Positions 29,403 through 51,926 of a DNA stretch of 64,000 nucleotides are shown piece after piece. The notes under the pieces are model-generated. The model was given only the letters and a program-made list of their open reading frames with translations. It searched no databases and was not told the origin of the DNA. The DNA is taken from positions 291,677,293 through 291,741,292 of the forward strand of contig NC_085140.1 of assembly GCF_024139115.2 (NCBI RefSeq), given 5' to 3'. The DNA comes from Armigeres subalbatus. Taxonomy: Eukaryota; Arthropoda; Insecta; Diptera; Culicidae. Position numbers and translations under genes: made by a program. Numbering within the stretch: position 1 is the first letter of the stretch; each line of letters begins with the position of its first letter.

Positions 29403-29560
29403 TCCAGATTAAATGCGCGAGCAAGGCTGCTCGACCCATCGAGCAAGATTGCTTGATGACCCATTGCTGCTCGATCCATCGAGCAAGATTGCTCGAAAGC
29501 CCAAGCAAGCGAAGTTGCTGATAGGGCATCTTGCTATCAAATTGTGCCGCTGAATGAAAA
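29403..29560. repeat. Outer terminal inverted repeat, left
   Basis: Contains three spaced copies of a GCTCGA(T/C)CCATCGAGCAA-type palindrome, then AAGCAAGCGA, GCTGATAGGGCATC and GTGCCGCTGAAT (29544-29555). All of these recur reversed at the right end. Confidence 0.85.
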
Positions 29561-29934
29561 CTATACCACCCACCGCTGGCAGCATCCAGCCACCAACAAA
29601 AAATATGTACAAACAGCAGCATGAAACAATGCAATGGCTTGTTTTCATATTCGCTAATCATATCGGACAATGCACTATCCGATAAAATTATTGTGAAATA
29701 AACATAATGTAAACGGTTATTAGCATGTGAAAAATTCCTGTTTACATTATGCTAATGTCGCGCTAGTATTGCCGATTGTTCATTGTCCGCTAGAACTAGC
29801 GAATATGACCACCAATCAATTGAAAAGAAGAAAGTTAAAGTTAGAAAAGTTAACCCTTGTTTTCTTTGAAAGAGGACCCATTATTCATATGGACCAATGC
29901 AGGAAATTTGCTGAATAAAATACAGCAATGAAAC

Positions 29935-32900
29935 AACTATTCAAGCACTTCTTTCTCAAAACCCCTTGCCTAGCCAAACATATGACACCCGTAGGCACCA
30001 TCATTGGGGTGTCCTTTGCTGCCTCTGTGAATTCCAGGAGGGTGTTTTTCCAAAAATTGAACTTTTCAATAGTTCGAGCAAAGACGATTTCAGTGGAAAA
30101 TATGAGGAAAATTAGCAAATATTCAAACACTTTTTTCTCAAAACTCCTGGCCTAGCCAAACATATGACACCCGTAGGCACCATCATTGGGGTGTCCTTTG
30201 CTGCCTCTGTGAATTCCAGGAGGGTGTTTTTCCAAAAATTGAACTTTTCAATAGTTCGAGCAAAGACGATTTCAGTGGAAAATATGAGGAAAATTAGCAA
30301 ATATTCAAACAATTTTTTCTCAAAACTCCTGGCCTAGCCAAACATATGACACCCGTAGGCACCATCATTGGGGTGTCCTTTGCTGCCTCTGTGAATTCCA
30401 GGAGGGTGTGTTTTCCAAAATTGGACTGTTCAATAGTTCGAGCAAAGACGATTTCAGTGGAAAATATGAGGGAAATTAGCAAATATTCAAACACTTTTTT
30501 CTCAAAACTCCTGGCCTAGCCAAACATATGACACCCGTAGGCACCATCATTGGGGTGTCCTTTGCTGCCTCTGTGAATTCCAGGAGGTGTTTTTCCAAAA
30601 TTGAACTTTTCAATAGTTCGAGCAAAGACGATTTCAGTGGAAAATATGAGGAAAATTAGCAAATATTCAAACAATTTTTTCTCAAAACTCCTGGCCTAGC
30701 CAAACATATGACACCCGTAGGCACCATCATTGGGGTGTCCTTTGCTGCCTCTGTGAATTCCAGGAGGGTGTTTTTCCAAAAATTGAACTTTTCAATAGTT
30801 CGAGCAAAGACGATTTCGATGGAAAATATGAGGAAAATTAGCAAATATTCAAAAATTTTTTTCTCAAAACTCCTGGCCTAGCCAAACATATGACACCCGT
30901 AGGCACCATCATTGGGGTGTCCTTTGCTGCCTCTGTGAATTCTAGGAGGGTGTTTTTCCAAAAATTGAACTTTTCAATAGTTCGAGCAAAGACGATTTCA
31001 GTGGAAAATATGAGGAAAATTAGCAAATATTCAAACACTTTTTTCTCAAAACTCCTGGCCTAGCCAAACATATGACACCCGTAGGCACCATCATTGGGGT
31101 GTCCTTTGCTGCCTCTGTGAATTCCAGGAGGGTGTTTTTCCAAAAATTGAACTTTTCAATAGTTCGAGCAAAGACGATTTCGATGGAAAATATGAGGAAA
31201 ATTAGCAAATATTCAAACAATTTTTTCTCAAAACTCCTGGCCTAGCGAAACATATGACACCCGTAGGCACCATCATTGGGGTGTCCTTTGCTGCCTCTGT
31301 GAATTCTAGGAGGGTGTTTTTCCAAAAATTGAACTTTTCAATAGTTCGAGCAAAGACGATTTCAGTGGAAAATATGAGGAAAATTAGCAAATATTCAAAC
31401 ACTTTTTTCTCAAAACTCCTGGCCTAGCCAAACATATGACACCCGTAGGCACCATCATTGGGGTGTCCTTTGCTGCCTCTGTGAATTCCAGGAGGGTGTT
31501 TTTCCAAAAATTGAACTTTTCAATAGTTCGAGCAAAGACGATTTCGATGGAAAATATGAGGAAAATTAGCAAATATTCAAACAATTTTTTCTCAAAACTC
31601 CTGGCCTAGCGAAACATATGACACCCGTAGGCACCATCATTGGGGTGTCCTTTGCTGCCTCTGTGAATTCTAGGAGGGTGTTTTTCCAAAAATTGAACTT
31701 TTCAATAGTTCGAGCAAAGACGATTTCAGTGGAAAATATGAGGAAAATTAGCAAATATTCAAACACTTTTTTCTCAAAACTCCTGGCCTAGCCAAACATA
31801 TGACACCCATAGGCACCATCATTGGAGTGTCCTTTGCTGCCTCTGTGAATTCCAGAAGGGTGTTTTCCAAAATTGAACTTTTCAATAGTTCGAGCAAAGA
31901 CGATTTCAGTGGAAAATATGAGGAAAATTAGCAAATATTCAAACACTTTTTCTCAAAACCCTGGCCTAGCCAAACATATGACACCCGTAGGCACCATCAT
32001 TGGAGTGTCCTTTGCTGCCTCTGTGAATTCCAGGAGGGTGTTTTTCCAAAAATTGAACTTTTCAATAGTTCGAGCAAAGACGATTTCAGTGGAAAATATG
32101 AGGAAAATTAGCAAATATTCAAACACTTTTTTCTCAAAACCCCTGGCCTAGCCAAACATATGACACCCGTAGGCACCATCATTGGAGTGTCCTTTGCTGC
32201 CTCTGTGAATTCCAGGAGGGTGTTTTTCCAAAAATTGAACTTTTCAATAGTTCGAGCAAAGACGATTTCAGTGGAAAATATGAGGAAAATTAGCAAATAT
32301 TCAAACACTTTTTTCTCAAAACTCCTGGCCTAGCCAAACATATGACACCCGTAGGCACCATCATTGGAGTGTCCTTTGCTGCCTCTGTGAATTCCAGGAG
32401 GGTGTTTTTCCAAAAATTGAACTTTTCAATAGTTCGAGCAAAGACGATTTCAGTGGAAAATATGAGGAAAATTAGCAAATATTCAAACACTTTTTTCTCA
32501 AAACCCCTGGCCTAGCCAAACATATGACACCCGTGGGCACCATCATTGGAGTGTCCTTTGCTGCCTCTGTGAATTCCAAAAATTGAACTTTCCAATAGTT
32601 CGAGCCAAGACGATTTCAGTGGAAAATATGAGGAAAATTAGCAAATATTCAAACACTTTTTTCTCAAAACTCCTGGCCTAGCCAAACATATGACACCCGT
32701 AGGCACCATCATTGGAGTGTCCTTTGCTGCCTCTGTGAATTCCAGGAGGGTGTTTTTCCAAAAATTGAACTTTTCAATAGTTCGAGCAAAGACGATTTCA
32801 GTGGAAAATATGAGGAAAATTAGCAAATATTCAAACACTTTTTTCTCAAAACCCCTGGCCTAGCCAAACATATGACACCCGTAGGCACCATCATTGGAGT

Positions 32901-35900
32901 GTCCTTTGCTGCCTCTGTGAATTCCAGGAGGGTGTTTTTCCAAAAATTGAACTTTTCAATAGTTCGAGCAAAGACGATTTCAGTGGAAAATATGAGGAAA
33001 ATTAGCAAATATTCAAACACTTTTTCTCAAAACCCTGGCCTAGCCAAACATATGACACCCGTAGACACCATCATTGGAGTGTCCTCTGCTGCCTCTGTGA
33101 ATTCCAGGAGGGTGTTTTTCCAAAAATTGAACTTTTCAATAGTTCGAGCAAAGACGATTTCAGTGGAAATCATGAGGAAAAATAGCAAAAATTTAAACAC
33201 TTTTTTCTCAAAACTCCTGGCCTAGCCAAACATACGACACCCGTAGGCACCATCATTGGAGTGTCCTTTGCTGCCTCTGTGAATTCCAGGAGGGTGTTTT
33301 TCCAAAAATTGAACTTTTCAATAGTTCGAGCAAAGACGATTTCAGTGGAAAATATGAGGAAAATTGGCAAATATTCAAACACTTTTTTCTCAAATCTCCT
33401 GGCCTAGCCAAACATACGACACCCGTAGGCACCATCATTGGGGTGTCCTTTGCTGCCTCTGTGAATTCCAGGAGGGTGTTTTTCCAAAAATTGAACTTTT
33501 CAATAGTTCGAGCAAAGACGATTTCAGTGGAAAATATGAGGAAAATTAGCAAATATTCAAACACTTTTTTCTCAAAACCCCTGGCCTAGCCAAACATATG
33601 ACACCCGTAGGCACCATCATTGGGGTGTCCTTTGCTGCCTCTGTGAATTCCAGGAGGGTGTTTTTCCAAAATTTGAACTTTTCAATAGTTCGAGCAAAGA
33701 CGATTTCAGTGGAAAATATGAGGAAAATTAGCAAATATTCAAACACTTTTTTCTCAAAACCCCTGGCCTAGCCAAACATATGACACCCGTAGGCACCATC
33801 ATTGGAGTGTCCTTTGCTGCCTCTGTGAATTCCAGGAGGGTGTTTTTCCAAAAATTGAACTTTTCAATAGTTCGAGCAAAGACGATTTCAGTGGAAAATA
33901 TGAGGAAAATTAGCAAATATTCAAACACTTTTTTCTCAAAACTCCTGGCCTAGCCAAACATATGACACCCGTAGGCACCATCATTGGGGTGTCCTTTGCT
34001 GCCTCTGTGAATTCCAGGAGGGTGTTTTTCCATAAATTGGACTGTTCAATACTCCGAGCAAAGACGATGTCAGTGGAAAAGATGAGGAAAATTAGCAAAA
34101 ATTCAAACACTTTTTCTCAAAACCCTGGCCTAGCCAAACATATGACACCCGTAGGCACCATCATTGGAGTGTCCTTTGCTGCCTCTGTGAATTCCAGGAG
34201 GGTGTTTTTCCAAAAATTGAACTTTTCAATAGTTCGACCAAAGACGATTTCAGTGGAAAATATGAGGAAAATTAGCAAATATTCAAACACTTTTTTCTCA
34301 AAACTCCTGGCCTAGCCAAACATATGACACCCGTAGGCACCATCATTGGGGTGTCCTTTGCTGCCTCTGTGAATTCCAGGAGGGTGTTTTTCCAAAAATT
34401 GAACTTTTCAATAGTTCGAGCAAAGACGATTTCGATGGAAAATATGAGGAAAATTAGCAAATATTCAAACACTTTTTTCTCAAAACTCCTGGCCTAGCCA
34501 AACATATGACACCCGTAGGCACCATCATTGGGGTATCCTTTGCTGCCTCTGTGAATTCTAGGAGGGTGTTTTTCCAAAAATTGAACTTTTCAATAGTTCG
34601 AGCAAAGACGATTTCAGTGGAAAATATGAGGAAAATTAGCAAAAATTTAAACACTTTTTTCTCAAAACTCCTGGCCTAGCCAAACATATGACACCCGTAG
34701 ACACCATCATTGGAGTGTCCTCTGCTGCCTCTGTGAATTCCAGGAGGGTGTTTTTTCCAAAAATTGAACTTTTCAATAGTTCGAGCGAAGACGATTTCAG
34801 TGGAAAATATGAGGAAAATTAGCAAATATTCAAACACTTTTTTCTCAAAACTCCTGGCCTGGCCAAACATATGACACCCGTAGGCACCATCATTGGGGTG
34901 TCCTTTGCTGCCTCTGTGAATTCCAGGAGGGTGTTTTTCCAAAAATTGAACTTTTCAATAGTTCGAGCAAAGACGATTTCGATGGAAAATATGAGGAAAA
35001 TTAGCAAATATTCAAACACTTTTTTCTCAAAACTCCTGGCCTAGCCAAACATATGACACCCGTAGGCACCATCATTGGGGTATCCTTTGCTGCCTCTGTG
35101 AATTCTAGGAGGGTGTTTTTCCAAAAATTGAACTTTTCAATAGTTCGAGCAAAGACGATTTCAGTGGAAAATATGAGGAAAATTAGCAAATATTCAAACA
35201 CTTTTTTCTCAAAACTCCTGGCCTAGCCAAACATATGACACCCGTAGGCACCATCATTGGGGTATCCTTTGCTGCCTCTGTGAATTCTAGGAGGGTGTTT
35301 TTCCAAAAATTGAACTTTTCAATAGTTCGAGCAAAGACGATTTCAGTGGAAAATATGAGGAAAATTAGCAAATATTCAAACACTTTTTTCTCAAAACCCC
35401 TGGCCTAGCCAAACATATGACACCCGTAGGCACCATCATTGGAGTGTCCTTTGCTGCCTCTGTGAATTCCAGGAGGGTGTTTTTCCAAAAATTGAACTTT
35501 TCAATAGTTCGAGCAAAGACGATTTCAGTGGAAAATATGAGGAAAATTAGCAAATATTCAAACACTTTTTTCTCAAAACCCCTGGCCTAGCCAAACATAT
35601 GACACCCGTAGGCACCATCATTGGAGTGTCCTTTGCTGCCTCTGTGAATTCCAGGGGAGAGCACTCCCAAAAATTGAACTCTCCAACAGTTCGCGCAAAG
35701 ACGATTTCCGTCGAAAATATGAGGAAAATCAGCAAAAATTCTAACACTTTTTCCTCAAAACTCTTGGCCTAGCCAAACATATGACACCCGTAGGCACCAT
35801 CATTGGGGTGTCCTTTGCTGCCTCTGTAAATTCCAGGAGGGTGTTTTTCCAAAATTGAACTTTTCAATAGTTCGAGCAAAGACGATTTCAGTGGAAAATA

Positions 35901-38900
35901 TGAGGAAAATTAGCAAATATTCAAACACTTTTTCTCAAAACTCCTGGCCTAGCCAAACATATGACACCCGTAGGCACCATCATTGGGGTGTCCTTTGTTG
36001 CCTCTGTGAATTCCAGGAGGGTGTTTTTCCAAAAGTTGGACAGTTCAATGGTTCGGGCAAAGACGATTTCAGTGGAAAATATGAGGAAAATTAGCAAATA
36101 TTCAAACACTTTTTTCTCAAAACTCCTGGCCTAGCCAAACATATGACACCCGTAGGCACCATCATTGGGGTGTCCTTTGCTGCCTCTGTGAATTCCAGGA
36201 GGGTGTTTTTCCAAAAATTGAACTTTTCAATAGTTCGAGCAAAGACGATTTCAGTGGAAAATATGAGGAAAATTAGCAAATATTCAAACACTTTTTTCTC
36301 AAAACTCCTGGCCTAGCCAAACATATGACACCCGTAGGCACCATCATTGGGGTGTCCTTTGTTGCCTCTGTGAATTCCAGGAGGGTGTTTTTCCAAAAAT
36401 TGAACTTTTCAATAGTTCGAGCAAAGACGATTTCAGTGGAAAATATGAGGAAAATTAGCAAATATTCAAACACTTTTTTCTCAAAACTCCTGGCCTAGCC
36501 AAACATATGACACCCGTAGGCACCATCATTGGGGTGTCCTTTGCTGCCTCTGTGAATTCTAGCAGGGTGTTTTCCAAAAATTGAACTTTTCAATAGTTCG
36601 AGCAAAGACGATTTCAGTGGAAAATATGAGGAAAATTAGCAAATATTCAAACACTTTTTTCTCAAAACCCCTGGCCTAGCCAAACATATGACACCCGTAG
36701 GCACCATCATTGGGGTGTCCTTTGTTGCCTCTGTGAATTCCAGGAGGGTGTTTTTCCAAAAATTGAACTTTTCAATAGTTCGAGCAAAGACGATTTCAGT
36801 GGAAAATATGAGGAAAATTAGCAAATATTCAAACACTTTTTTCTCAAAACTCCTGGCCTAGCCAAACATATGACACCCGTAGGCACCATCATTGGGGTGT
36901 CCTTTGTTGCCTCTGTGAATTCTAGGAGGGTGTTTTTCCAAAAATTGAACTTTTCAATAGTTCGAGCAAAGACGATTTCAGTGGAAAATATGAGGAAAAT
37001 TAGCAAATATTCAAACACTTTTTTCTCAAAACTCCTGGCCTAGCCAAACATATGACACCCGTAGGCACCATCATTGGGGTGTCCTTTGTTGCCTCTGTGA
37101 ATTCCAGGAGGGTGTTTTTCCAAAAATTGAACTTTTCAATAGTTCGAGCAAAGACGATTTCAGTGGAAAATATGAGGAAAATTAGCAAATATTCAAACAC
37201 TTCTTTCTCAAAACTCCTGGCCTAGCCAAACATATGACACCCGTAGGCACCATCATTGGGGTGTCCTTTGCTGCCTCTGTGAATTCTAGGAGGGTGTTTT
37301 TCCAAAAATTGAACTTTTCAATAGTTCGAGCAAAGACGATTTCAGTGGAAAATATGAGGAAAATTAGCAAATATTCAAACACTTTTTTCTCAAAACTCCT
37401 GGCCTAGCCAAACATATGACACCCGTAGGCACCATCATTGGGGTGTCCTTTGCTGCCTCTGTGAATTCCAGGAGGGTGTTTTTTTAAAAATTGAACTTTT
37501 CAATAGTTCGAGCAAAGACGATTTCGATGGAAAATATGAGGAAAATTAGCAAATATTCAAACACTTTTTTCTCAAAACTCCTGGCCTAGCCAAACATATG
37601 ACACCCGTAGGCACCATCATTGGGGTGTCCTTTGCTGCCTCTGTGAATTCCAGGAGGGTGTTTTTCCAAAAATTGAACTTTTCAATAGTTCGAGCAAAGA
37701 CGATTTCGATGGAAAATATGAGGAAAATTAGCAAATATTCAAACACTTTTTTCTCAAAACTCCTGGCCTAGCCAAACATATGACACCCGTAGGCACCATC
37801 ATTGGGGTGTCCTTTGCTGCCTCTGTGAATTCTAGGAGGGTGTTTTTCCAAAAATTGAACTTTTCAATAGTTCGAGCAAAGACGATTTCAGTGGAAAATA
37901 TGAGGAAAATTAGCAAATATTCAAACACTTTTTTCTCAAAACTCCTGGCCTAGCCAAACATATGACACCCGTAGGCACCATCATTGGGGTGTCCTTTGTT
38001 GCCTCTGTGAATTCCAGGAGGGTGTTTTTCCAAAGATTGAACTTTTCAATAGTTCGAGCAAAGACGATTTCAGTGGAAAATATGAGGAAAATTAGCAAAT
38101 ATTCAAACACTTTTTTCTCAAAACTCCTGGCCTAGCCAAACATATGACACCCGTAGGCACCATCATTGGGGTGTCCTTTGCTGCCTCTGTGAATTCCAGG
38201 AGGGTGTTTTTCCAAAAATTGAACTTTTCAATAGTTCGAGCAAAGACGATTTCAGTGGAAAATATGAGGAAAATTAGCAAATATTCAAACACTTTTTTCT
38301 CAAAACTCCTGGCCTAGCCAAACATATGACACCCGTAGGCACCATCATTGGGGTGTCCTTTGCTGCCTCTGTGAATTCCAGGAGGGTGTTTTTCCAAAAA
38401 TTGAACTTTTCAATAGTTCGAGCAAAGACGATTTCAGTGGAAAATATGAGGAAAATTAGCAAATATTCAAACACTTTTTCTCAAAACTCCTGGCCTAGCC
38501 AAACATATATGACACCCGTAGGCACCATCATTGGGGTGTCCTTTGCTGCCTCTGTGAATTCCAGGAGGGTGTTTTTCCAAAAATTGAACTTTTCAATAGT
38601 TCGAGCAAAGACGATTTCAGTGGAAAATATGAGGAAAATTAGCAAATATTCAAACACTTTTTTCTCAAAACCCCTGGCCTAGCCAAACATATGACACCCG
38701 TGGGCACCATCATTGGGGTGTCCTCTGCTGCCTCTGTGAATTCCAGGAGGGTGTTTTTCCAAAAATTGAACTTTTCAATAGTTCGAGCGAAGACGATTTC
38801 AGTGGAAAATTCGAGGAAAATTAGCAAATATTCAAACACTTTTTTCTCAAAACTCCTGGCCTGGCCAAACATATGACACCCGTAGGCACCATCATTGGGG

Positions 38901-40412
38901 TGTCCTTTGCTGCCTCTGTGAATTCCAGGAGGGTGTTTTTCCAAAAATTGAACTTTCCAATAGTTCGAGCAAAGACGATTTCAGTGGAAAATATGAGGAA
39001 AATTAGCAAATATTCAAACACTTTTTTCTCAAAACTCCTGGCCTAGCCAAACATATGACACCCGTAGGCACCATCATTGGGGTGTCCTTTGTTGCCTCTG
39101 TGAATTCCAGAACGGTGGTTCGCCGAAAATTGAACTTTTCAATAGTTCGAGCAAAGACGATTTCAGTGGAAAATATGAGGAAAATTAGCAAATATTCAAA
39201 CACTTTTTTCTCAAAACCCCTGGCCTAGCCAAACATATGACACCCGTAGGCACCATCATTGGAGTGTCCTTTGCTGCCTCTGTGAATTCCAAGAGGGTGT
39301 TTTTCCAAAAATTGAACTTTTCAATAGTTCGAGCAAAGACGATTTCAGTGGAAAATATGAGGAAAATTAGCAAATATTCAAACACTTTTTTCTCAAAACT
39401 CCTGGCCTAGCCAAACATATGACACCCGTAGGCACCATCATTGGGGTGTCCTTTGCTGCCTCTGTGAATTCCAGGAGGGTGTTTTTCCAGAAATTGAACT
39501 TTTCAATAGTTCGAGCAAAGACGATTTCGATGGAAAATATGAGGAAAATTAGCAAATATTCAAACACTTTTTTCTCAAAACTCCTGGCCTAGCCAAACAT
39601 ATGACACCCGTAGGCACCATCATTGGGGTATCCTTTGCTGCCTCTGTGAATTCTAGGAGGGTGTTTTTCCAAAAATTGAACTTTTCAATAGTTCGAGCAA
39701 AGACGATTTCAGTGGAAAATATGAGGAAAATTAGCAAATATTCAAACACTTTTTTCTCAAAACCCCTGGCCTAGCCAAACATATGACACCCGTAGGCACT
39801 ATCATTGGGGTGTCCTTTGCTGCCTCTGTGAATTCTAGGAGGGTGTTTTTCCAAAAATTGAACTTTTCAATAGTTCGAGCAAAGACGATTTCGATGGAAA
39901 ATATGAGGAAAATTAGCAAATATTCAAACACTTTTTTCTCAAAACTCCTGGCCTAGCCAAACATATGACACCCGTAGGCACCATCATTGGGGTATCCTTT
40001 GCTGCCTCTGTGAATTCTAGGAGGGTGTTTTTCCAAAAATTGAACTTTTCAATAGTTCGAGCAAAGACGATTTCGATGGAAAATATGAGGAAAATTAGCA
40101 AATATTCAAACACTTTTTTCTCAAAACTCCTGGCCTAGCCAAACATATGACACCCGTAGGCACCATCATTGGGGTATCCTTTGCTGCCTCTGTGAATTCT
40201 AGGAGGGTGTTTTTCCAAAAATTGAACTTTTCAATAGTTCGAGCAAAGACGATTTCGATGGAAAATATGAGGAAAATTAGCAAATATTCAAACACTTTTT
40301 TCTCAAAACTCCTGGCCTAGCCAAACATATGACACCCGTAGGCACCATCATTGGGGTGTCCTTTGCTGCCTCTGTGAATTCCAGGAGGGTGTTTTTCCAA
40401 AAAATTAGCTTT
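29935..40412 (-). repeat. 182-bp satellite array, left arm (about 57 copies)
   Basis: Tandem 182-bp units of very high mutual identity. On the minus strand each unit reads from a TTTTGAGAAAAAAGTGTTTG word through TTTCCACTGAAATCG, CTTTGCTCGAACTATTG and GGAATTCACAGAGGCAGC to GGTGTCATATGTTTGGC. Variant units (CGATGG against CAGTGG; GGGGTATCC, GGAGTGTCC and GGGGTGTCC) are clustered, showing local homogenisation. A shortened unit lies near 32550. Strand is given as that of the repeated 66-codon open frame. Confidence 0.97.
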
Positions 40413-40839: not shown

Positions 40840-40916
40840 GATAATATTTTAGTACATATCGATTGGGGTACTCTTTGATGCCTCCGTGTATCAGAAGGTT
40901 TTCTTCCGATGGTTCT

Positions 40917-41290
40917 TTACTAGGTCGGCAACGGAATATTCACCCCGTCGTATTTTTCTAAACCTTCCAATGCCATTGAGAGCTGGTAAAGCACAACTTT
41001 ATTTGAATCCATCTGCTGATTCAGCCGTCCCCTGTGAAGCCAGTCGATAGATTTATCAAATATGAAGACCTGGAGTTTAGTTGCTGGAGAGAAAGTGATC
41101 AAATCAACAATAAAATAGGACGGAAGGATCGACGACATAAAAGAGCCGATGGATGATCCTAGTGCGACGTTTTCCTATAATTCTGCCGACGGGCAACGAT
41201 CCGGTTCAAGCATAAAGCGCGCCGTAGTATTACGGAAGATCTCCTCTATGAATAACACCGGAGGCGAACGCACTTCTCTATAAGAGCAGA
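40917..41290 (-). pseudogene. Unidentified protein fragment in the core of the giant element
   Basis: On the minus strand, about 120 codons are open apart from one TAG near 41175. Sequence landmarks are REVRSPPVLFIEEIFRN, then SSILPSYFIVDLITFSP, KLQVFIFDKSIDWLHRGRLN and EKYDGVNIPLPT, ending in a stop at 40920. Composition looks like real protein, and nothing like it occurs elsewhere in the window. I do not recognise the family. It may be a captured host fragment or part of a transposon gene. Confidence 0.4.
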
Positions 41291-41559
41291 TAAGTGAAAT
41301 TTTCAATTTATTTTTTCATTTAATTTCTTTGGGAATGATAGAAATAGACAATTTCTAACCCCTACGCTATTTTCTTAGTTCTGTTCAGTGGCGCCGGGAG
41401 TGGGTAAGACAAGTAGGACATGTCCTACGCACGAATTTTCCTGGGTGGGACTGGGACAGTCAAGGCATTGTGTTACCCATTATTCTGGTGAGAGCATATC
41501 ATTCAGGTAATTTTTTTGCAATACTGTCTGATATGTCTGATTACTAGTTCTACAAAAAT

Positions 41560-41905
41560 ATAATCAAATTTTGGGTATAAGCCAATAGATAAATTCAAAA
41601 TTTCGACAAATAAAACAAAAATTCCATAAACAAATAAGAATTTTCCACAAAACAAAAATAAATAAGCACTTTGAAAAGCAAAAATTTGCAATTATAAAAG
41701 AAGAATTTTCCATAAAGAAATACAAATTTTCCACGAAAAAAAAACAAAATTTCCATAAATAAAGCAATATTAGCAATAAAAAATTACAAAATTTTCCACC
41801 AAATAAATATATTTTTACAATAAAAATATAAAAATTTTCCACAAAATGATCAATAAAGAGCAATAAAAAAATAAGAAAATTTCCATAAAGAAAATAAAAC
41901 CCAGA
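41560..41905. repeat. AT-rich AAATTTTCCA(C/T)AAA minisatellite
   Basis: About 18 imperfect copies of a 17-22-base word built on AAATTTTCCACAAAATAAA. The minus-strand frames across it are low-complexity Phe/Leu/Tyr artefacts. Confidence 0.8.
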
Positions 41906-41959
41906 CTAATCCACCTAGCGGTGATGGTGCCTTTCTCGTTTTTTTCGAGTGAGTAATTT

Positions 41960-42395
41960 CTACGCACTTTTGGTTAAAAAAAGTATTTTGGCCATAGCTT
42001 CTGAACCCATAGTCCGATCCGGCCAATTTTCAACAGGAAACAATGGGGCCGGATTCTGCATCGAATGTAACTTGCGAGCAAATCGGCTAAGGGTAAGTCC
42101 CTAAAAATGAGTGAGATTTTTTTGTAAAAAAATGTATTTTGGCCATAACTTCGAATCCCATAGTCCGATTCCACCAATTTTCAATGCGAAATAATGGGAC
42201 AAGATTCCGCGTCGAATGCAACTTGTTGCGTGAACTTGCGAGCAAATTCATTAAAGATAAGTGCCTAACAAATTAGTGAGAATTTTGTATGTGTTTCTTA
42301 TGTAAAAAAAACGAATTTTGGCCATAATTTCGAAATTTATAGTCCGATCTGTCCAATTTTCAATACGAAACAATTGGACAAGATTCTACATCGCC
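41960..42395. repeat. Three tandem copies of a ~150-170-bp repeat
   Basis: Each copy contains ATTTTGGCCATAACTTCGAA, then ATAGTCCGAT, CCAATTTTCAATA, GAAACAAT and GGACAAGATTC. The copies start near 41983, 42131 and 42315. The central ones are followed by CTTGCGAGCAAAT. Confidence 0.8.
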
Positions 42396-42900
42396 CGCCA
42401 GCTAAGGGTTTTGTACTTAGCTGGTAGTGCAGCCTGGGCACTGTTGTCCTTGTGACATCAGATAGAGTGAGAGGGTGCGACCAAGGGGATCATCGTCCCT
42501 AACCGCTAATCCCAAGGCGTTAAGCGACCCGTGCCGAGGGGATGCATGGCCAGGGGGGTGAAATAATGAGCTAGGCCTTTAACGGAGCCTGTGGGGTTTA
42601 CCTGGGCACCCTCCACAGTAATTGTCCCTTACCGCGTCATGCTGGGCTGTGCCGTGGTGGACCTTTTTTCACGAGCAACTCGTGGGATCAAAACGGAAAA
42701 CCAAGTCAATTCTTCTTCAATTAGTGATTGTAGGTGACAACCCCTTCGCAAGAGGTGGGTTGTTCAGGTCTCCGCCTAGGAGGTCAGAGGCAATAGTCGG
42801 CAGCTCGGTGCGCAGCGCCAGCGTGGGTCACTTCACCTTCTCCCCGGCTTCCATATCTAGCGCTCTGATCATATCTGGGCGTAACTGCAAATAATGAATA
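42396..42900 (+). pseudogene. LINE 5' leader fragment
   Basis: CTTAGCTGGTAGTGCAGCC and then GGGCACTGTTGTCCTTGTGAC match the leader seen reversed near 8100-8150. The following GC-rich text (AACGGAGCCTGTGGGGTTTACC) is echoed near 24970. No ORF follows, so this is a promoter/leader remnant. Confidence 0.55.
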
Positions 42901-43689
42901 ATTCATATTATTCATCTTATCATTTGAGCATAATTAGTTATAGAAAACCCCCTGATAATAATAGAACAATACCTTCCAAAGCCGTAATTTCCCCTATGCA
43001 TTGACATTTGTGCTGCCAAAATGAGAAATGAGCCAAGGTGAGAGATAGGACGGGCATGGTTACAGTCATTTTGGAACTCTGTCGAGATAAATGTTGGAGT
43101 TGGAACAGTATTTTCATGCTGATTCAATGCTGATTGAATAATAGAAGTAACAGACTAACAGAACAAATTTAATAGCTAAGATTTTGATTGAATAAAGAAA
43201 ATTCAAGTAAAATAATAAACTGCCTGTAATATTTAGACAACATGAAAAAGACAATTGTTTAACTTGAGCAGGAGACATAGGATGCTTATGTTACCGAAGA
43301 ATTTCTAACAGCTCAGCTCAGCTCAGCAAATCATCAACTCTTTAAGATTTTTGTGGTTACATTGCGTTGCATTGCATTTTGAGTATTATTTTTAAAAGTG
43401 TGCCTTTGACCTCAAGCTTTCCCTTGAAGATGCATGGCATTTCTGGAAGGATTGTCAAGAGAAACCATTCGATATTGAGATAGCTGAGTACAACGTATCG
43501 TATGCCTGTAATAGCAGACATTTTGAAGGCATTTCTTTCTGCAGATTTATCTGGTAAAGTATTCAAGCGATGTTGCTGCTATTTCCCGAAAACTTTGAAT
43601 TTCCAATTATCTTGATAATCCGAAAAAAAATTCCATAATTCTTGAAATCCGAAAAAAGCTCGATAAACCCTGAAATTTCAAGGAGAGGT
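42901..43689. other. No gene seen
   Basis: AT-rich DNA with a short AGCTC tandem run at about 43311-43328. Minus-strand frames at 42912-43127 and 43357-43566 show no recognisable domain. Confidence 0.4.
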
Positions 43690-43916
43690 AACTAAAATGT
43701 AAGACAGGAACACCATCTTCGACAGCTTAGACAGTCGTACAGACTGAGCAATAATCACTTGGCATGAGACAACGGACAGGTTACATAACACCCAGGACCA
43801 GTGGAGAATTTTTCGATCACGAAAAGTTTCCTCTTTACCGGGGGAATCGAATCCATACTCACTAGCTCATGCGTCTAGACGATTGACGTCGCTAACCGCA
43901 CGGCCATGAAGCCCGC
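43690..43916 (-). mobile_element. tRNA-derived SINE (Feilai-like)
   Basis: On the minus strand a tRNA-like head shows an A-box-like TGGCCGTGCGG near 43910 and a B-box-like GGATTCGATTCCC near 43852. A tRNA-unrelated body follows with CAGTCTGTACGACTGTCTAAG. The arrangement and body resemble the Feilai family of Aedes. Ends are approximate. Confidence 0.7.
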
Positions 43917-44165
43917 AATACCTTGAAATTATTTCTAATGGCTATGCAAAACTCGAAAGTCTTATGTATCTAAAGCTCTTCAGTTTTTTACGACATTTCC
44001 AGATTTTTATGTCAGAGCTGTTCAAGTCGTCACTGGATGTATTGACAGCTATTTGGTAGGCCAACTTGCGGACAGTTGAACAACAATAACAATAACATTT
44101 TGTGTGTTTGACTGTAAGAATAGAAAAAAGTAGGCCCCCCTAGAATTATTCCTTAGTTACGCAAA

Positions 44166-44798
44166 TGCCGGCTACGCCGGTAGTGGTTATGGACGGCACT
44201 TGGCTTGTGGAGGCGACGATCCGCAAACGCGATGGGCTTTCGGCCTTCTAGGTGGCGACGGAACAGCTGGACGCCATCATCGACTTTGCGTCATCGAAGC
44301 ATAATATCAGTAAGGACCTCAAGAGGAGCTTGCTAAAACTTCGAAAGTCGGTGTTGGATGCCAAGCTGGAAAAGGCGGTCGGGACGGCCAAGTTCGAACC
44401 CGTGAAATCTGTGGAGTCAAGGTCTACCCAGACTGAGGCCCAAGAATTCGCGAATTTGGGCAAGGTCGAATCGACCGACACGGTGGTGCCAAAGTCTACC
44501 CAGACTGAGGCTCAAGTATTCGCGGGCACGTCGGGGGTGACTGCTCCAACGGAGCAGACACAAAAACGGGGGATACAGTCTCCAGGGGATCAGCTCCCTG
44601 GGGGCCGCTCCAAAACGCGGAGGGTTACTACCCCGAACAAGGGTAGAGGGGCTGGGAAGCTGAACCTCGGCCAGGTACCTCCAAACCCGGGGGAGGAAGG
44701 ACCTGGAAAGGTCCGTCCACCCAGGAAAGACGGTGGTAAGCGGTTACGGAAGGCTGAGAGCTCTCAGCTGCCCCAGACCGGGGGAGACTCCCCACGCT
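44166..44798 (+). pseudogene. R1-clade LINE ORF1 N-terminal fragment
   Basis: The frame starts MPATPVVVMDGTWLVEAT, has a TAG soon after, then continues VATEQLDAIIDFASSKHNIS and DLKRSLLKLRKSVL, the conserved N-terminal block of R1-type ORF1 (gag-like) proteins. A Pro/Gly/Arg-rich low-complexity region follows. The direct repeat STQTEAQ(E/V)FA occurs twice. No zinc knuckles follow, because the sequence switches abruptly to another LINE in reverse orientation near 44796. Confidence 0.75.
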
Positions 44799-45420
44799 CG
44801 CCAAGTTTTGCACCTGGTCTGCCCATCTCGCTCGCTGCGCTCCACGCCGTCTCGTACATCTTTTCAGGGTTGCTGTCCGGCATTCTTGCAACATGTCCTG
44901 CCCATCGTACCCTTCCGGCTTTAGCTACCTTCTGGATACTGGGTTCGCCGTAGAGCTGGGCGAGCTCGTGGTTCATTCTTCGTCGCCACACACCGTCTTC
45001 TTGCACACCGCCAAAGATGGTCCTAAGCACCCGTCTCTCGAATACACCGAGTGCTTGCAAGTCCTCCTCGAGCATTGTCCATGTCCCATGTCCGTATAGG
45101 AAAACCGGTCTTATTAGTGTCTTGTACATGGCACATTTGGTGCGGTGCCGAATCTTTTTTGACCGCAGTTTCTTCTGGAGCCCGTAGTAGGCCCGACTTC
45201 CACAAATGATGCGCCTTCGTATTTCACGACTAACATTGTTATCAGCCGTTAGCAAGGGTCCGAGATAGACGAATTCCTCGATCACCTCGAAGGTATCCCC
45301 GTCTATCGTAACACTGCTTCCCAGGCGGGCCTTGTCGCGCTCGGTTCCGCTCACAAGCATGTACTTTGTTTTTGGCGCATTCACCACCAGTCCAAATTTT
45401 ATTGCTTCACGTTGGGCGAT
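44796..45420 (-). pseudogene. C-terminal part of an RTE-like LINE ORF2
   Basis: Open over about 200 codons. It opens FGLVVNAPKTKYMLVSG just after the RT catalytic core, then EEFVYLGPLLTADNNVSREI, YKTLIRPVFLYG, FERRVLRTIFGG and GRVRWAGHVARMPDSNPEKM. It is the same family as 21230-24320 and supplies the part missing there. It is truncated at both ends; the 3' side joins the inverted R1 fragment directly. Confidence 0.85.
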
Positions 45421-46155
45421 AGGCGGCAGTTAACGATGGTGGAGCGACGGTCGGCCAGCCTCATTGGAGTGAAAATTTTGCCCGGTTGCGGTCCAAGCGA
45501 CAACGGCTGCCGCGTTGATGTTGATCGCGTCGTCGATGGTGGAGCTGCGGTAATTGTTGATAGTAAATGCAGTCATTTAAAGTAAATCGATTCTTTTGAT
45601 TACCATGATACCTTGGAAAAATTTTGTTAAGCTGAGAGGATTTTTCCGAAGTGCAACAACTAGTGACCAGCACACTCTTGGAGTTCAGTAAATTCTTCTA
45701 GCAAGATTCTGAATTTGGTTATGTTCTGTTAGTGATTTCCAATGCGTACCATTGAGATAAATAACAATATAAAATTGGTCAATTGGAGAAAAACTTCGAT
45801 TAGTTACGCAGAACTTCGGTTAGTTCAAAAATTTAATTGCATGGATGATATCAGTAGCAGTCAACTAAAATTTTCATTTTTGCTGTTGGGGATTGGAATT
45901 GCGCATTATCCAAGGTTAATCGGTTCTTTTTATAACCAAAATTTTATACAAGAGAATATTTATCCGAAACTATTTTTATTCAAAGTGCAAATAGGGATGG
46001 CGACAGTTCAATCAAAACGATGCCGTCAGTAGCGAAATCGCGAGGTGCGCCTTCAGCGATTTGACGGTAATTATCCTTGATTACTGACATATCAATGGTT
46101 AAAAACAGTAAAGATTGCAATTTAACCTGACAAATTGTTATTTGCAGTAGAAATA
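45421..46155. other. No gene seen
   Basis: The first 250 bases are GC-richer and the rest AT-rich. A pair of related words (TCCGAA..., TTTGTTAAGCTGAG and GGTTAATCGGTTCTTTT) suggests an old duplicated repeat. Short frames here are not convincing. Confidence 0.35.
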
Positions 46156-46698
46156 GGGTAAAGTGCCCATTAGTGGACCATCCAGACATTTTTTCATTAT
46201 TACAGCAAAATGGAAACATTTTCCTATGAAATTCCATCGGGCGAACCTACCTTACAGTCCAGTCCTACCTTACATGATTTGATTACATGCATTGAAAATG
46301 CTATTGAAAGTAAAATTGGTTGATTTTTTATAATTCTATAGAAAATAAACACAAGAGTGTCCATTGTAGGAATATTTTGGGGGGACCATAATAGGGAAGA
46401 AGAACGTCCCGAAACGAAACATGAAAATCAAATGAAGTGTCGACTATAGGGAAGCAATTTCCTATTATAGACCCCCAGGGGGTCTACTATGGGGCATATT
46501 TAGTCCGACTTTACAATGTTAATTTCAATGAATAACGTCGTATATTTGAGTGGTTTATGCATGTATCGTGAAGAGGAGATGCAGAGCTTGATATTAGATA
46601 ACACGCAAAATAATTATTTTAAAAATTTCCACTCCTTATGCCAGGAAGAGCAAAATTTCGCTACTAGGGGGTCCACTATTGGGCTTTTTACACTACCC
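46156..46698. mobile_element. 543-bp MITE-like element (GGGTAAAGTGCCCA ends)
   Basis: Inverted ends: GGGTAAAGTGCCCATTAGTG on the left and GGGTAGTGTAAAAAGCCCAA on the reverse right, both followed by a TAGTGGACC word. CTATTATAGACCCCC and GGGGGTCTACTATGG form an inner palindrome near 46470. No protein recognised. Confidence 0.65.
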
Positions 46699-47035
46699 AA
46701 ATTAAGTTAAGCTCATTTAGAAGATTTTTCGAAAAATAAAAAAACAACAATGAAATTGAATTTTTAAGTGAAAACCCTAACAAATTAAACAAACAAAACT
46801 AAACTTCTCATATTATACAAAACTCGAGAATTTAACAATTTTGACTTAATTACATAAATATATCAGTTACTTTCAAAATGTAAATTTTTAATAGTCGTTA
46901 TCCAACAAATTTCATGTTTTGAATATTGCTCGAAACCAGTGTTGTCTCAAAAGGAATCCAAAGAAAAATTTTGTAATATTCATGAATGATGGGACTTTTG
47001 CTAGGTTCTTCATTTCGCCAAACTGTTTTACGTAG
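46699..47035. other. No gene seen
   Basis: AT-rich spacer between two MITEs, with no supported feature. Confidence 0.5.
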
Positions 47036-47039
47036 TTAA

Positions 47040-47236
47040 GGTCACTCCTGTCCTGACAGAATCCAAGTTTCAAAGTGCTCGCGTTTTCGGGGGCACACCA
47101 CTTGATACGGAGGCGGCAGACAACTGTAATTTTTGTTGATTCAGCTTTGCTGTGTCAGTTGTGCGTTGCTTCCTTACCGATTGGTGTGCCCTGAAAACGC
47201 GAGCACTTTAAAAACTTGGATTCTGTCAGAGTGACC
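47040..47236. mobile_element. 197-bp palindromic MITE, TSD TTAA (second copy of the 28615 family)
   Basis: GGTCACTCCTG at the left end and its reverse at the right, flanked by TTAA at 47036-47039 and 47237-47240. It shares the GCTCGCG, GGGCACACCA and CGGAAGC-type words with 28615-28836. Confidence 0.85.
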
Positions 47237-47312
47237 TTAACGTCGGGCGGACGTGTCTTGTACAACCCTTATATTTTTTCTTCAGTGGCTTTACATTCCA
47301 ACTGGAACTTCT

Positions 47313-47942
47313 GGGGCATCAAAATCCGTACACTTAAGCTCATCAGTATATGAAAATGCTTGCACAAAATTCAAATCCAAATGAAACGATTTTCATCTGT
47401 ATCAATGCACAAAGGCCTCTAGTTCTGAAGTGTACAACATTTATACATTAAAAACTACGAAAAACAAGGTAAAATACTGAACCAAATCCTGAATCGCGAT
47501 ACGTCCACCGTGGACGGAGGATCAAAATCCGTACAGCATTTTTTTAACTAAATAATAAAAGTGAAATAGACTGTTTAACTAAACTACCACTGTAAATAGT
47601 TCAATACGCACCTTGAGAAGCGATCCCTTCGATTTAAATTCCGCTTATTTTTACTTCATGATTTGCAGGTTGTATCTAAAACACGGATACTTTTGGTGGT
47701 ATAATGTTCTACACGAAAAAAATGGCGCCAGAAACTCAACGATTCGTGGGTGGTGATTAGTTTTTGATTAATTTTGTTTAAACTACAAAGCCTACTCTTC
47801 ATCTTATTGATTTAAAAGCTCACTGTCAAGTATATGAACAGGATAAGATAAATTATTCACAAATTGATTACAGTAAACCCCCTTCAATTAAATAATATCT
47901 CATAAAGTGGATGGACATCGGTGCTGTACGGATTTTGGGCCC
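47313..47942. mobile_element. MITE-like element with CAAAATCCGTACA ends
   Basis: GGGGCATCAAAATCCGTACA on the left is met by GGGCCCAAAATCCGTACA on the reverse right. An internal direct copy, ATCAAAATCCGTACAGC, lies at about 47520, so the element may be composite. No target duplication was found. Confidence 0.55.
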
Positions 47943-48099
47943 ACGACATTTCCTCAGTTATTAATTAAAGCTTTTCTATATCCGCCATTGCATGAATATG
48001 TAATGTGGCTAGTACAATGGATACTCTATGCCCAAGGAGTCGAGAATGTTTCCAACCCAAAATATCCTAGACCGAACCAAGAATTGAACTCGCCATCTC

Positions 48100-48154
48100 G
48101 CTCAGAGACGAGCCAGCCTCGGGCTGAAAGTCTCCTTAATAAAGACAAAAAAAA
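48100..48154 (+). mobile_element. Ultra-short SINE-like insertion (hairpin plus A-tail), 13-bp TSD
   Basis: AACTCGCCATCTC at 48087-48099 and 48155-48167 flanks a 55-bp insert. The insert holds GAGAC-GAG-CCAGCC and GGGCTG-AAA-GTCTC, which fold into one hairpin, followed by CTTAATAAAGAC and an A-run. A similar insert is at 53788-53845 on the other strand. Long direct repeats and a terminal A-tail are signs of LINE-mediated retroposition. Confidence 0.75.
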
Positions 48155-48406
48155 AACTCGCCATCTCCGGATTGGCAATCCTACGCCGTTGCTTGCAGGG
48201 CTACTGAAGACTGGTGCCTACGGCTATCATATGCCCGGCTAGGCCAGAAGTTTTTTTAGCAAAAGTGATTGTATGAAGATTTGTGAGCTTCTTCCGACTA
48301 TTCATAAAATATATCATGCATTCATATCATCCATTGAAACTGCGATTACGCAAGAAAGTCAGCTATTAGGAAGGGTATCCAATTAACCTATATGTGTATT
48401 GCGAAA

Positions 48407-48625
48407 AATGCATTCCGCAATCGAAACAAGAATAATGATGAAAATTCGGAAAAACGTGTTAATACAATGTGCAGCCATTTACGTTTGAGCCTAAATATAT
48501 GCAATTTGATGTTCATGAAATGTTGCTACATGGTGCCGCTGAATTTCGCTAGCAAACTTTTTCTATTCTGCGGTTTCAAACAACTCAATGTATCGAATTT
48601 TGCACTGACCTTATAAACTGTTGAA
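48407..48625. repeat. Inner inverted repeat, right
   Basis: Reverse complement partner of 40413-40630 at roughly 85-90% identity by eye. It contains GTGCCGCTGAAT at 48533-48544. Just left of it (48168-48406) I see no other feature. Confidence 0.85.
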
Positions 48626-51290
48626 AAGTAAAATTTTTGGAAAAACACCCTCCTGGAATTCACAGAGGCAGCAAAGGACACCCCAATGATGGTGCCTACG
48701 GGTGTCATATGTTTGGCTAGGCCAGGGGTTTTGAGAAAAAAGTGTTTCAATATTTGCTAATTTCTCTCATATTTTCCACTGAAATCGTCTTTGCTCGAAC
48801 TATTGAAAAGTTCAATTTTTGGAAAAACACCCTTCTGGAATTCACAGAGGCAGCAAAGGACACCCCAATGATGGTGCCTACGGGTGTCATATGTTTGGCT
48901 AGGCCAGGGGTTTTGAGAAAAAAGTGTTTGAATATTTGCTAATTTTCCTCATATTTTCCACTGAAATCGTCTTTGCTCGAACTATTGAAAAGTTCAATTT
49001 TTGGAAAAACACCCTTCTGGAATTCACAGAGGCAGCAAAGGACACCCCAATGATGGTGCCTACGGGTGTCATATGTTTGGCTAGGCCAGGGGTTTTGAGA
49101 AAAAAGTGTTTGAATATTTGCTAATTTTCCTCATATTTTCCACTGAAATCGTCTTTGCTCGAACTATTGAAAAGTTCAATTTTTGGAAAAACACCCTCCT
49201 GGAATTCACAGAGGCAGCAAAGGACACCCCAATGATGGTGCCTACGGGTGTTATATGTTTGGCTAGGCCAGGAGTTTTGAGAAAAAAGTGTTTGAATATT
49301 TGCTAATTTTCCTCATATTTTCCACTGAAATCGTCTTTGCTCGAACTATTGAAAAGTTCAATTTTTGGAAAAACACCCTTCTGGAATTCACAGAGGCAGC
49401 AAAGGACACCCCAATGATGGTGCCTACGGGTGTCATATGTTTGGCTAGGCCAGGGGTTTTGAGAAAAAAGTGTTTGAATATTTGCTAATTTTCCTCATAT
49501 TTTCCACTGAAATCGTCTTTGCTCGAACTATTGAAAAGTTCAATTTTTGGAAAAACACCCTCCTGGAATTCACAGAGGCAGCAAAGGACACCCCAATGAT
49601 GGTGCCTACGGGTGTCATATGTTTGGCTAGGCCAGGGGTTTTGAGAAGAAGCTGTTTGAATATTTGCTAATTTTCCTCATATTTTCCACTGAAATCGTCT
49701 TTGCTCGAACTATTGAAAAGTTCAATTTTTGGAAAAACACCCTCCTGGAATTCACAGAGGCAGCAAAGGACACCCCAATGATGGTGCCTACGGGTGTCAT
49801 ATGTTTGGCTAGGCCAGGGGTTTTGAGAAAAAAGTGTTTGAATATTTGCTAATTTTCCTCATATTTTCCACTGAAATCGTCTTTGCTCGAACTATTGAAA
49901 AGTTCAATTTTTGGAAAAACACCCTTCTGGAATCCACAGAGGTAGCAAAGGACATCCCAATGATGGTGTCTACGGGTGTCATATGTTTGGCTAGGCCAGG
50001 GGTTTTGAGAAAAAAGTGTTTGAATATTTGCTAATTTTCCTCATATTTTCCACTGAAATCGTCTTTGCTCGAACTATTGAAAAGTTCAATTTTTGGAAAA
50101 ACACCCTTCTGGAATCCACAGAGGTAGCAAAGGACATCCCAATGATGGTGTCTACGGGTGTCATATGTTTGGCTAGGCCAGGGTTTTGAGAAAAAGTGTT
50201 TGAATATTTGCTAATTTTCCTCATATTTTCCACTGAAATCGTCTTTGCTCGAACTATTGAAAAGTTCAATTTTGGAAAAACACTCTCCTGGAATTCACAG
50301 AGGCAGCAAAGGACACCCCAATGATGGTGCCTACAGGTGTCATATGTTTGGCTAGGCCAGGGGTTTTGAGAAAAAGTGTTTGAATATTTGCTAATTTTCC
50401 TCATATTTTCCACTGAAATCGTCTTTGCTCGAACTATTGAAAAGTTCAATTTTGGAAAAACACCCTCCTGGAATTCACAGAGGCAGCAAAGGACACCCCA
50501 ATGATGGTGCCTACGGGTGTCATATGTTTGGCTAGGCCAGGGGTTTTGAGAAAAAGTGTTTGAATATTTGCTAATTTTCCTCATATTTTCCACTGAAATC
50601 GTCTTTGCTCGAACTATTGAAAAGTTCAATTTTTGGAAAAACACCCTCCTGGAATTCACAGAGGCAGCAAAGGACACCCCAATGATGGTGCCTACGGGGG
50701 TCGGAAGTGCGGCTTGGCCAGGGCTTTTGAGAAAAAAGTGTTTGAATATTTGCTAATTTTCCTCATATTTTCCACTGAAATCGTCTTTGCTCGAACTATT
50801 GAAAAGTTCAATTTTTGGAAAAACACCCTTCTGGAATCCACAGAGGCAGCAAAGGACATCCCAATGATGGTGTCTACGGGTGTCATATGTTTGGCTAGGC
50901 CAGGGGTTTTGAGAAAAAAGTGTTTGAATATTTGCTAATTTTCCTCATATTTTCCACTGAAATCGTCTTTGCTCGAACTATTGAAAAGTTCAATTTTTGG
51001 AAAAACACCCTCCTGGAATTCACAGAGGCAGCAAAGGACACCCCAATGATGGTGCCTACGGGTGTCATATGTTTGGCTAGGCCAGGGGTTTTGAGAAAAA
51101 AGTGTTTGAATATTTGCTAATTTTCCTCATATTTTCCACTGAAATCGTCTTTGCTCGAACTATTGAAAAGTTCAATTTTTGGAAAAACACCCTCCTGGAA
51201 TTCACAGAGGCAGCAAAGGACACCCCAATGATGGTGCCTGTGGGTGTCGTATGTCTGGCTAAGCCAGGAGTTTTGAGATAGAAGTTTTTC
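48626..51290 (+). repeat. 182-bp satellite array, right arm (about 15 copies, inverted)
   Basis: The same 182-bp unit as in the left arm but in the opposite orientation. Some units share private variants not common on the left (CCCTTCTGG for CCCTCCTGG; a GACATCCCAATGATGGTGTCT type). One unit at 50690-50720 has a cluster of substitutions. Confidence 0.97.
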
Positions 51291-51916
51291 AAAGACCACA
51301 TCATTTTCTGGGCTGGGCTTTTTTTAAATATTCATTCCGTTGTGAGCTGTTGTTCCATCTTTTTTTTTTGTTAGAGCCTCTAGTTTTCCTTTTTGCTCGT
51401 TTGTTTTTCTCTGAAACAATCTGCATTTTTTTTTCTGGAGCCAATTCCAGAAAAAAACACCCTTTACAGTTCAGCAAATGTGCCTAAGAAAATCGTTTGT
51501 TCGACAATATTTTATACATAATTTTTTCACATACAAATTTTGTTTGCTCAGTGGGCCGGACCAGCCACTCTTGAACTGCTAAAAAAAAGTTGCTATGGAA
51601 AATGGAATGCTTAACGGTTTGCACTTGGTTTTATTTCTCACCTTTATTTATGCAAAGCTTTCGGGCATTCATATTCGGAAGTGTTCATTTCGGCATTACT
51701 CAAGTGTGAAATAATGAACTTCACACATCGCGATTCAGCGGCACGCGGACATTTCTTGTGCAATTCAGCGGCACATTTACTTCGCAGGGATGCCCTATCA
51801 GCATCTCGCTTGCTTGCGCTGTCGAGCAGTCTTGCTCGATGGATCGAGCAGCCTTGGGCCATCGAGCAATCTTGCTCGATGGATCGAGCAGCCTTGCTCG
51901 CGCATTTAATTGCGAT
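51291..51916. repeat. Outer flank and terminal inverted repeat, right
   Basis: About 51775-51916 is the reverse counterpart of 29403-29560, with GATGCCCTATCAGCATC and GCTCGATGGATCGAGC-type palindromes. ATTCAGCGGCAC occurs twice, at 51733-51744 and 51763-51774. 51291-51700 is unique AT-rich DNA without a counterpart on the left. Confidence 0.8.
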
Positions 51917-51926
51917 GATCATATTA

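What the first reader, a model, noticed from the sequence alone, without database searches (positions are those of the whole stretch)
29403..51916. Giant satellite-armed foldback element, possibly a new family
A mobile unit of 22.5 kb with inverted arms that are mostly 182-bp satellite (about 57 copies left, 15 right), bounded by a 10-bp direct repeat inside a dated LTR. It suggests that a satellite array can be carried and spread by a transposable element. Known foldback elements such as FB have much shorter arms. The arms are very unequal, as expected from unequal exchange after insertion.
Basis: partly seen in the sequence, partly recalled or inferred. Interest (0 to 1): 0.9.

Follow-up and report, generated by a model that had tools for sequence, protein, structure and literature searches.

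The report
Jumping element with satellite DNA arms
A very large mosquito transposon, whose two mirror-image arms are mostly tandem satellite DNA, has jumped to many places in the genome and probably brought the satellite with it, which shows one way such repeats can spread.

Summary
Confirmed, with corrections. At 29402-51916 sits a real transposon: the 5' LTR it hit and the intact 3' LTR (empty site) are both in the window. Ten pairs of termini face each other 17.6-37.9 kb apart; 8 of 10 have perfect 9-bp duplications, all different. In the six copies read in full, arms hold 5-76 monomers and all 12 arrays share one inner junction. The interior is flipped relative to the ends in 2 of 6. In the listed parts of two searches the satellite lies only at loci with element ends, except one array of at least 35 kb. 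Divergence among the window's left monomers suggests that a multi-monomer array travelled with the jump. Best reading: a giant non-autonomous foldback element, probably moved by a Mutator-like (MULE) transposase. No autonomous partner was found. Tetris and Galileo are precedents; new are size and carriage of long arrays.

The parts
29393..29401 (.). 9-bp target site duplication, left copy (GATCATATT)
   Evidence: unoccupied copy begins at 55996
29402..51916 (+). whole foldback element, 22,515 bp, ends ATCCAG... / ...TGCGAT
29402..29933 (+). left outer domain; its first ~154 bp are the terminal inverted repeat with ~22-bp subterminal tandem repeats (29418-29496)
29934..40421 (+). left satellite array, 182-bp monomer, ~58 copies
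40422..40630 (+). left inner inverted repeat, ~209 bp; the array stops at monomer position 147
40631..48407 (+). interior, no transposase found; long segments shared by the other copies
44252..44950 (+). open frame resembling a retroelement ORF1 (recalled resemblance; only a DUF7817 hit under its cut-off); related frames in other copies
44767..45429 (-). frame resembling a non-LTR reverse-transcriptase tail (recalled resemblance; no Pfam hit); related frames in other copies
48212..48283 (-). single diverged monomer fragment (75-78% identical) outside the array; found in 4 of 6 copies
48408..48615 (-). right inner inverted repeat
48616..51292 (-). right satellite array, ~15 copies
51293..51916 (-). 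right outer domain; terminal inverted repeat 51763-51916, 88.6% identical to the left over 149 columns
51917..51925 (.). 9-bp target site duplication, right copy (GATCATATT)
29141..29401 (+). 5' LTR of the host retroelement, first part (continues at 51917-52148)
51917..52148 (+). 5' LTR of the host retroelement, second part
55742..56227 (+). 3' LTR = unoccupied copy of the insertion site

Best explanation
It is one copy of a low-copy family of giant non-autonomous foldback DNA transposons in Armigeres subalbatus. The copies read have terminal inverted repeats of ~154 bp with short subterminal tandem repeats, then two inverted arms filled with a 182-bp satellite, then an interior of 6-12.6 kb without a transposase. 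SHOWN: the unit inserts as a whole with a 9-bp duplication; in six copies the arrays have a fixed inner junction and variable length; as far as the searches listed places, the satellite lies at loci of this family, with one exception. INFERRED: a Mutator-like (MULE) transposase encoded elsewhere cuts and pastes it by its ends; monomer number drifts by unequal exchange or slippage; recombination between the inverted arms flips the interior; arrays that lose their ends stay behind as free satellite.
For: Empty site in the window and 9-bp duplication. Terminus core in 32 places, 0 in the control. 8 of 10 paired copies with perfect, mutually different 9-bp duplications: gatcatatt, gcaatattg, attacgatg, cttatcgtg, cgtttatac, gtgaccctg, ctctgctat, cttatattg. 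Those eight are 22.5, 19.8, 17.6, 29.1, 25.2, 37.9, 33.3 and 31.0 kb long (for the first five; my subtraction for the last three, whose insides were not read). The 12 inner array junctions of 6 copies align at one place (position 147 printed for 11 of 12). Left outer junction at monomer position 5-7 in 6 of 7. Interiors of four copies 94-99% identical over the long segments; the other two, about 84-94% over most, carry the interior inverted relative to the ends. Satellite core: 1,647 places; the 100 that are listed lie at loci with an element terminus. MULE-like features: 9-bp duplication, TIR over 100 bp, subterminal tandem repeats, asymmetric terminal bases outside the inverted repeat as in Tm1.
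Against: No transposase seen in or near any copy: 0 of 108 MULE matches within 200 kb of a listed terminus; no tblastn match of 22 open frames from 7 of 8 fetched MULE loci to the six full copies, the C1982 part or 8 other loci. Only 8 of 108 MULE loci, 3.3 kb each, were compared with the termini, with weak 10-18-bp matches (E 0.2-0.7) in 5 of 8, one of them holding ATTAAATGCG. 2 of 10 paired copies lack the duplication (C1974, C399). The copy at C2:88.67M has only about 9 monomers, and no element interior in the 2.3 kb read behind them. No shared order of monomer variants between arms (no positive control). The idea that monomers carry transposase sites found no support: the shared 9-mer TTCGAGCAA is reached by 233 of 1000 shuffles.
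Confidence: 0.82

Rival explanations
1. The element inserted with few or single monomers, and the long arrays grew in place at each locus afterwards; transposition does not carry long arrays.
For: Array lengths differ widely between copies and arms. Neighbours are more alike than distant monomers in some of the 12 arms tested (C1+ z=5.7, C3:43.3+ z=6.3, W+ z=3.1; the other nine between -1.4 and 2.2). No arm order is shared. 28 of 1540 monomer pairs in the window's left array are identical. The Tetris authors suggested that larger arrays may have disrupted transposition (PMC4079207, section 19 read).
Against: The LTR pair puts the window's insertion under about 0.8% pairwise divergence (4 events in 486 bp), but its left monomers differ by 3.4% on average. 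18 of 56 form a set mutually differing by more than 4 substitutions, 9 of 56 if only variants seen in at least 5 monomers count; even at more than 6, which allows for the upper 95% limit of 4 events (about 2%, my arithmetic), 12 and 5 remain. So several lineages were there at insertion, unless gene conversion brought them later. The inner junction is the same in 12 of 12 arms.
Confidence: 0.15
2. Same element, but moved by a transposase outside the Mutator superfamily (for example P/Galileo-like or Merlin-like).
For: No MULE with these ends was found; foldback architecture is known from a P-superfamily element, Galileo.
Against: A 9-bp duplication is the usual MULE/Tm1 length; Ae. aegypti MULEs have 8-9 bp duplications and mostly subterminal tandem repeats. 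Other superfamilies were not searched here, so this is weak.
Confidence: 0.25
3. An ordinary satellite array split by an inversion, or an assembly artefact.
For: Satellites are hard to assemble; one flanking segment is present twice, 99.6% alike.
Against: Empty site, 8 different perfect duplications, one shared junction in independent loci.
Confidence: 0.02

Closest known systems
Tetris of Drosophila virilis (PMC4079207; passages and section 19 read)
   Same: Non-autonomous foldback; TIR with outer domain, tandem-repeat domain (~220 bp) and inner domain; middle without coding capacity; 8-10 bp duplications; repeats also form longer satellite-like arrays; no transposase found
   Different: Tetris TIRs reach 1,735 bp and only three structurally complete copies were found; here one arm of a complete copy with duplications has an array of 13.7 kb (C3:43.3M). 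Sequences not compared
Galileo (PMC3573991, PMC4168063; passages read)
   Same: Foldback-like, internal tandem repeats of ~140-210 bp in the TIRs, different repeat numbers in the two arms; longest copy flanked by identical duplications
   Different: P superfamily; the longest copy in the D. willistoni paper is 9,021 bp with TIRs of 4,246 and 4,680 bp and about 16 repeats in the fuller arm
Muta1-14 MULEs of Aedes aegypti (PMC5225508; passages read)
   Same: 8-9 bp duplications, 12 of 14 families with TIRs over 100 bp and 10 of those with short subterminal tandem repeats, many non-autonomous derivatives with mixed interiors; Muta1 called a type 2 foldback
   Different: Muta1 is 3,198 bp and encodes its transposase; no satellite arms in the passages read
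Tm1 of Meloidogyne (PMC3169594; passages read)
   Same: Mostly 9-bp duplications, foldback-like TIR of short repeats, asymmetric 7-bp motifs outside the inverted repeat
   Different: Elements of about 0.5-2.6 kb in the passages read; Phantom-type MULE transposase known; repeats of ~14 bp
FB of Drosophila (recalled)
   Same: Foldback arms of tandem repeats, 9-bp duplication
   Different: Shorter repeats and arms; sequence not compared here

Membership tests
Foldback element (architecture) | Long inverted terminal arms containing tandem repeats around a middle domain | tested here: met
Foldback element (architecture) | Mobile: target duplication and unoccupied site | tested here: met
   unoccupied site seen for the window's copy only
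Mutator-like element (MULE) | 8-10 bp target duplication | tested here: met
   9 bp in 8 of 10 paired copies
Mutator-like element (MULE) | TIR longer than 100 bp | tested here: met
   149 aligned columns at 88.6%
Mutator-like element (MULE) | Shares its ends with an element that encodes a MULE-domain transposase | tested here: inconclusive
   0 of 108 genomic MULE matches near a listed terminus; 8 of 108 MULE loci compared, only weak 10-18-bp matches; no remnant in the copies. A diverged or unassembled partner is not excluded.
Tetris family | Sequence identity of TIR-FD / TIR-220 | not tested
   Tetris sequence not at hand; monomer 182 bp against an average of 218 bp
P superfamily (Galileo) | P-type transposase sharing these ends | not tested
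   no search made for P-type transposases near termini

The most novel reading that the evidence does not exclude
Transposition itself is a working vehicle of satellite DNA here: elements with arms of 5-76 monomers jump as units, deposit ready-made multi-kilobase arrays at new sites on all three chromosomes, and arrays that lose their ends grow on as free satellite (C1465, at least 35 kb). Long arrays do not block movement, contrary to what was suggested for Tetris.
Probability: 0.5. Interest if true: 0.7.

Novelty: new variant of a known kind. Interest (0 to 1): 0.58.

Why it matters
How satellites come to lie at scattered sites is an open question. Here one family gives complete, duplication-flanked insertions with long arrays, one of them dated by an LTR pair, beside an array of the same monomer without visible element ends, so the route from transposon arm to satellite can be tested in one genome.

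Tried and rejected
Rejected: (1) 10-bp duplication, replaced by 9 bp plus terminal A. (2) Satellite monomers as repeats of the terminal transposase site: shared 9-mer not beyond chance. (3) Conserved order of monomer variants between arms: no pair above z=4 (no positive control). (4) Autonomous copy among termini not followed by satellite: at C2:232.80M only about 139 bp of terminus remain, no satellite in the 5.7 kb read inside, and a 508-aa zinc-finger-like frame begins about 0.5 kb inside (best Pfam hit under its cut-off); C3:191.16M and C2:310.18M are tips of about 36 and 28 bp in other sequence, and C2:355.82M (3 mismatches) shows no element sequence beyond the core (its only other match is a 68% stretch 2.6 kb away). 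(5) Genome-wide count of the interior: not completed. (6) Genome search with the right terminus: not completed; right ends were taken from the left-terminus search, which also matched them.

Limits: one search scored 37 of 135 candidate regions and listed part of 313 matches; one search listed 100 of 1,647 places, reaching only to C2:291.72 Mb. Further free arrays may exist, and 'confined to the family' holds for the listed part alone. Six of ten paired copies were read in full; the monomer analyses used 440 full-length monomers from these six and C1982. The lower bound on monomers at insertion assumes no later gene conversion and few assembly errors, and rests on one insertion with 4 dated events.

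Full report
Where it is. The window is C2:291677293-291741292 of a 1.336-Gb assembly. The frame at 58349-59467 (-) is a yellow-family protein (Pfam MRJP), 99% identical to 'protein yellow-like [Armigeres subalbatus]', and the longest contig listed for that protein, 465,049,604 bases, is the length of C2. The species is therefore Armigeres subalbatus, a mosquito.

The observation. TRF finds the two 182-bp arrays, 57.8 copies at 29934-40421 and 14.7 at 48616-51289, in opposite orientation. Terminal inverted repeats 29408-29555 and 51763-51910 are 88.6% identical. Both flanks match one continuous stretch at 55742-56227, which lacks the element. That stretch and the interrupted one are the two LTRs, TGTC...TACA, 486 bp, of a single retroelement with its own duplication ACTAT on both sides; they differ by 3 substitutions and a 2-bp indel. 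So the insertion is real and younger than a young LTR element.

The duplication. Six copies were read in full: the window's own and five others. Ends of four further paired copies and of unpaired termini were fetched and read. Both ends begin with A: ATCCAG before ATTAAATGCGCGAGC at the left, ATCGCA before the same at the right. The duplication is 9 bp. It is perfect in 8 of 10 paired copies, with eight different sequences, so these are eight independent insertions. The exceptions are C1974, whose left end abuts the inverted tip of another copy beside an opposite array (satellite in each of three stretches sampled between 8000 and 42030), and C399, whose left end is altered.

The family. The 158-bp terminus has 36 matches; a 24-mer core with up to 3 mismatches has 32, the reversed control none. 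One of the 32 (C2:355.82M) shows no element beyond the core, and two are mere tips. Some pairs of termini share flanks and are probably alleles or duplicates of one insertion: C1242:79.5k with C462, C399 with C3:38.03M, C391 with C3:418.57M. Arms in the six full copies hold 21-76 monomers on the left and 5-44 on the right; C1400 has 21 and 21. Inequality is common but not a rule.

Arrays belong to the element. The inner junction is the same in 12 of 12 arms (monomer position 147 printed for 11 of them) and is followed by the same ~209-bp inner inverted repeat. The left outer junction lies at positions 5-7 in 6 of 7 copies, with C1:122.7M differing. Monomers of all arms are 92-97% alike, hardly more within an arm than between arms. 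Interiors of four copies (window, C258, C1974, C1400) are 94-99% identical over the long segments. C3:43.3M and C1:122.7M are about 84-94% identical to them over most long segments, and there the interior is inverted relative to the ends, as recombination between inverted arms would produce. Those two also have a different right outer domain, so there are at least two subfamilies.

Did arrays travel or grow in place? The LTR pair bounds the age of the window's insertion at about 0.6-0.8% pairwise divergence, i.e. 1-1.5 differences per monomer. The 56 full-length left monomers differ by 6.2 on average; single linkage at up to 4 differences leaves 11 groups. With substitutions only and variants seen in at least 2 of 440 monomers, 18 of 56 differ mutually by more than 4; with variants in at least 5 monomers, 9 of 56. 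If the LTR count is taken at its upper limit (about 2%, my arithmetic), the stricter sets, more than 6 apart, hold 12 and 5. Thus several monomer lineages, probably 9 or more (about 1.6 kb), were in this arm at insertion, unless later gene conversion imported them. Growth since then is also likely: 28 of 1540 pairs are identical, and neighbours are more alike in some arms, not in others.

Where else is the monomer? A 36-bp core has 1,647 places. The 100 that are listed, all exact, lie only in C1:122.7M, C2:88.67M (a copy with about 9 monomers and no element interior in the 2.3 kb read behind them) and the window's locus with its neighbour. Among the places listed only C1465 has no terminus: its array runs from 53462 to the contig's end at 88934, as sampled at both edges and by the listed matches between, and the 1.96 kb beside its readable edge holds nothing of the element. 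This may be a free satellite, or an arm whose end is lost or unassembled.

What moves it. I found no transposase in any copy: the interior holds frames resembling non-LTR retroelement pieces (recalled resemblance), and C258 has an added retroelement with an 887-aa frame. The genome has 108 MULE-domain matches, none within 200 kb of a listed terminus. Of these, 8 loci of 3.3 kb were compared with the termini: only weak 10-18-bp matches in 5 of 8; 22 frames from 7 of the 8 leave no tblastn trace in the copies. The MULE assignment therefore rests on the 9-bp duplication, the long TIR with subterminal tandem repeats, and the asymmetric terminal bases, which match what is reported for Aedes MULEs and Tm1 (passages of PMC5225508 and PMC3169594).

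Comparison. Tetris has the same plan in small: outer domain, ~220-bp tandem domain, inner domain, 8-10 bp duplications, satellite arrays of up to 66 copies, no known transposase (PMC4079207). Its authors suggested that larger arrays may have disrupted transposition. Galileo's longest copy in D. willistoni is 9,021 bp with TIRs of 4.2 and 4.7 kb (PMC4168063). The present paired copies are about two to four times longer as wholes, with up to about five times more repeats in an arm, still with perfect duplications in 8 of 10. I saw no paper on this element in the listings; in the Armigeres genome paper the words 'satellite' and 'foldback' do not occur in the main text (PMC12333114, passages).

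Verdict. It is a new variant of a known kind: a foldback transposon that carries long satellite arrays. The open points are the transposase and how much of each array arrived with the jump.

Noticed in passing
window 21946-30649; genome C2:291660000-291668702: A flanking segment, including the element's left end and four monomers, is present twice 39 kb apart at 99.6% identity; the upstream copy breaks inside the satellite. Tandem duplication or a misplaced second haplotype.
   Followed up: partly
C1974 (L014, L060, L061): Two left ends abut head to head (CTGGA|ATCCAG) beside an opposite satellite array, satellite in each of three stretches sampled between 8000 and 42030.
   Followed up: partly
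C3:191159799 (L051) and C2:310175889 (L052): Isolated tips of the element, about 36 and 28 bp, in unrelated sequence; possible remnants of excision or abortive insertion.
   Followed up: partly
window 58349-59467 (-): Open frame of a yellow-like gene about 6.4 kb beyond the element; effect of the insertion on it is unknown.
   Followed up: no
window 59652-59850 and 61635-61833: Inverted repeats of 199 bp, 100% identical, about 1.8 kb apart: looks like a very young DNA transposon.
   Followed up: no
window 9168-9650 and 10991-12746: 152-bp tandem repeats in inverted orientation to each other, another possible repeat-armed structure.
   Followed up: no
window 48212-48283: A lone diverged monomer fragment inside the interior of 4 of 6 copies, perhaps a relic of the monomer's origin.
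   Followed up: partly
L055 781-2305 (-): 508-aa frame with C2H2-like fingers about 0.5 kb from a truncated terminus; best Pfam hit under its cut-off.
   Followed up: partly
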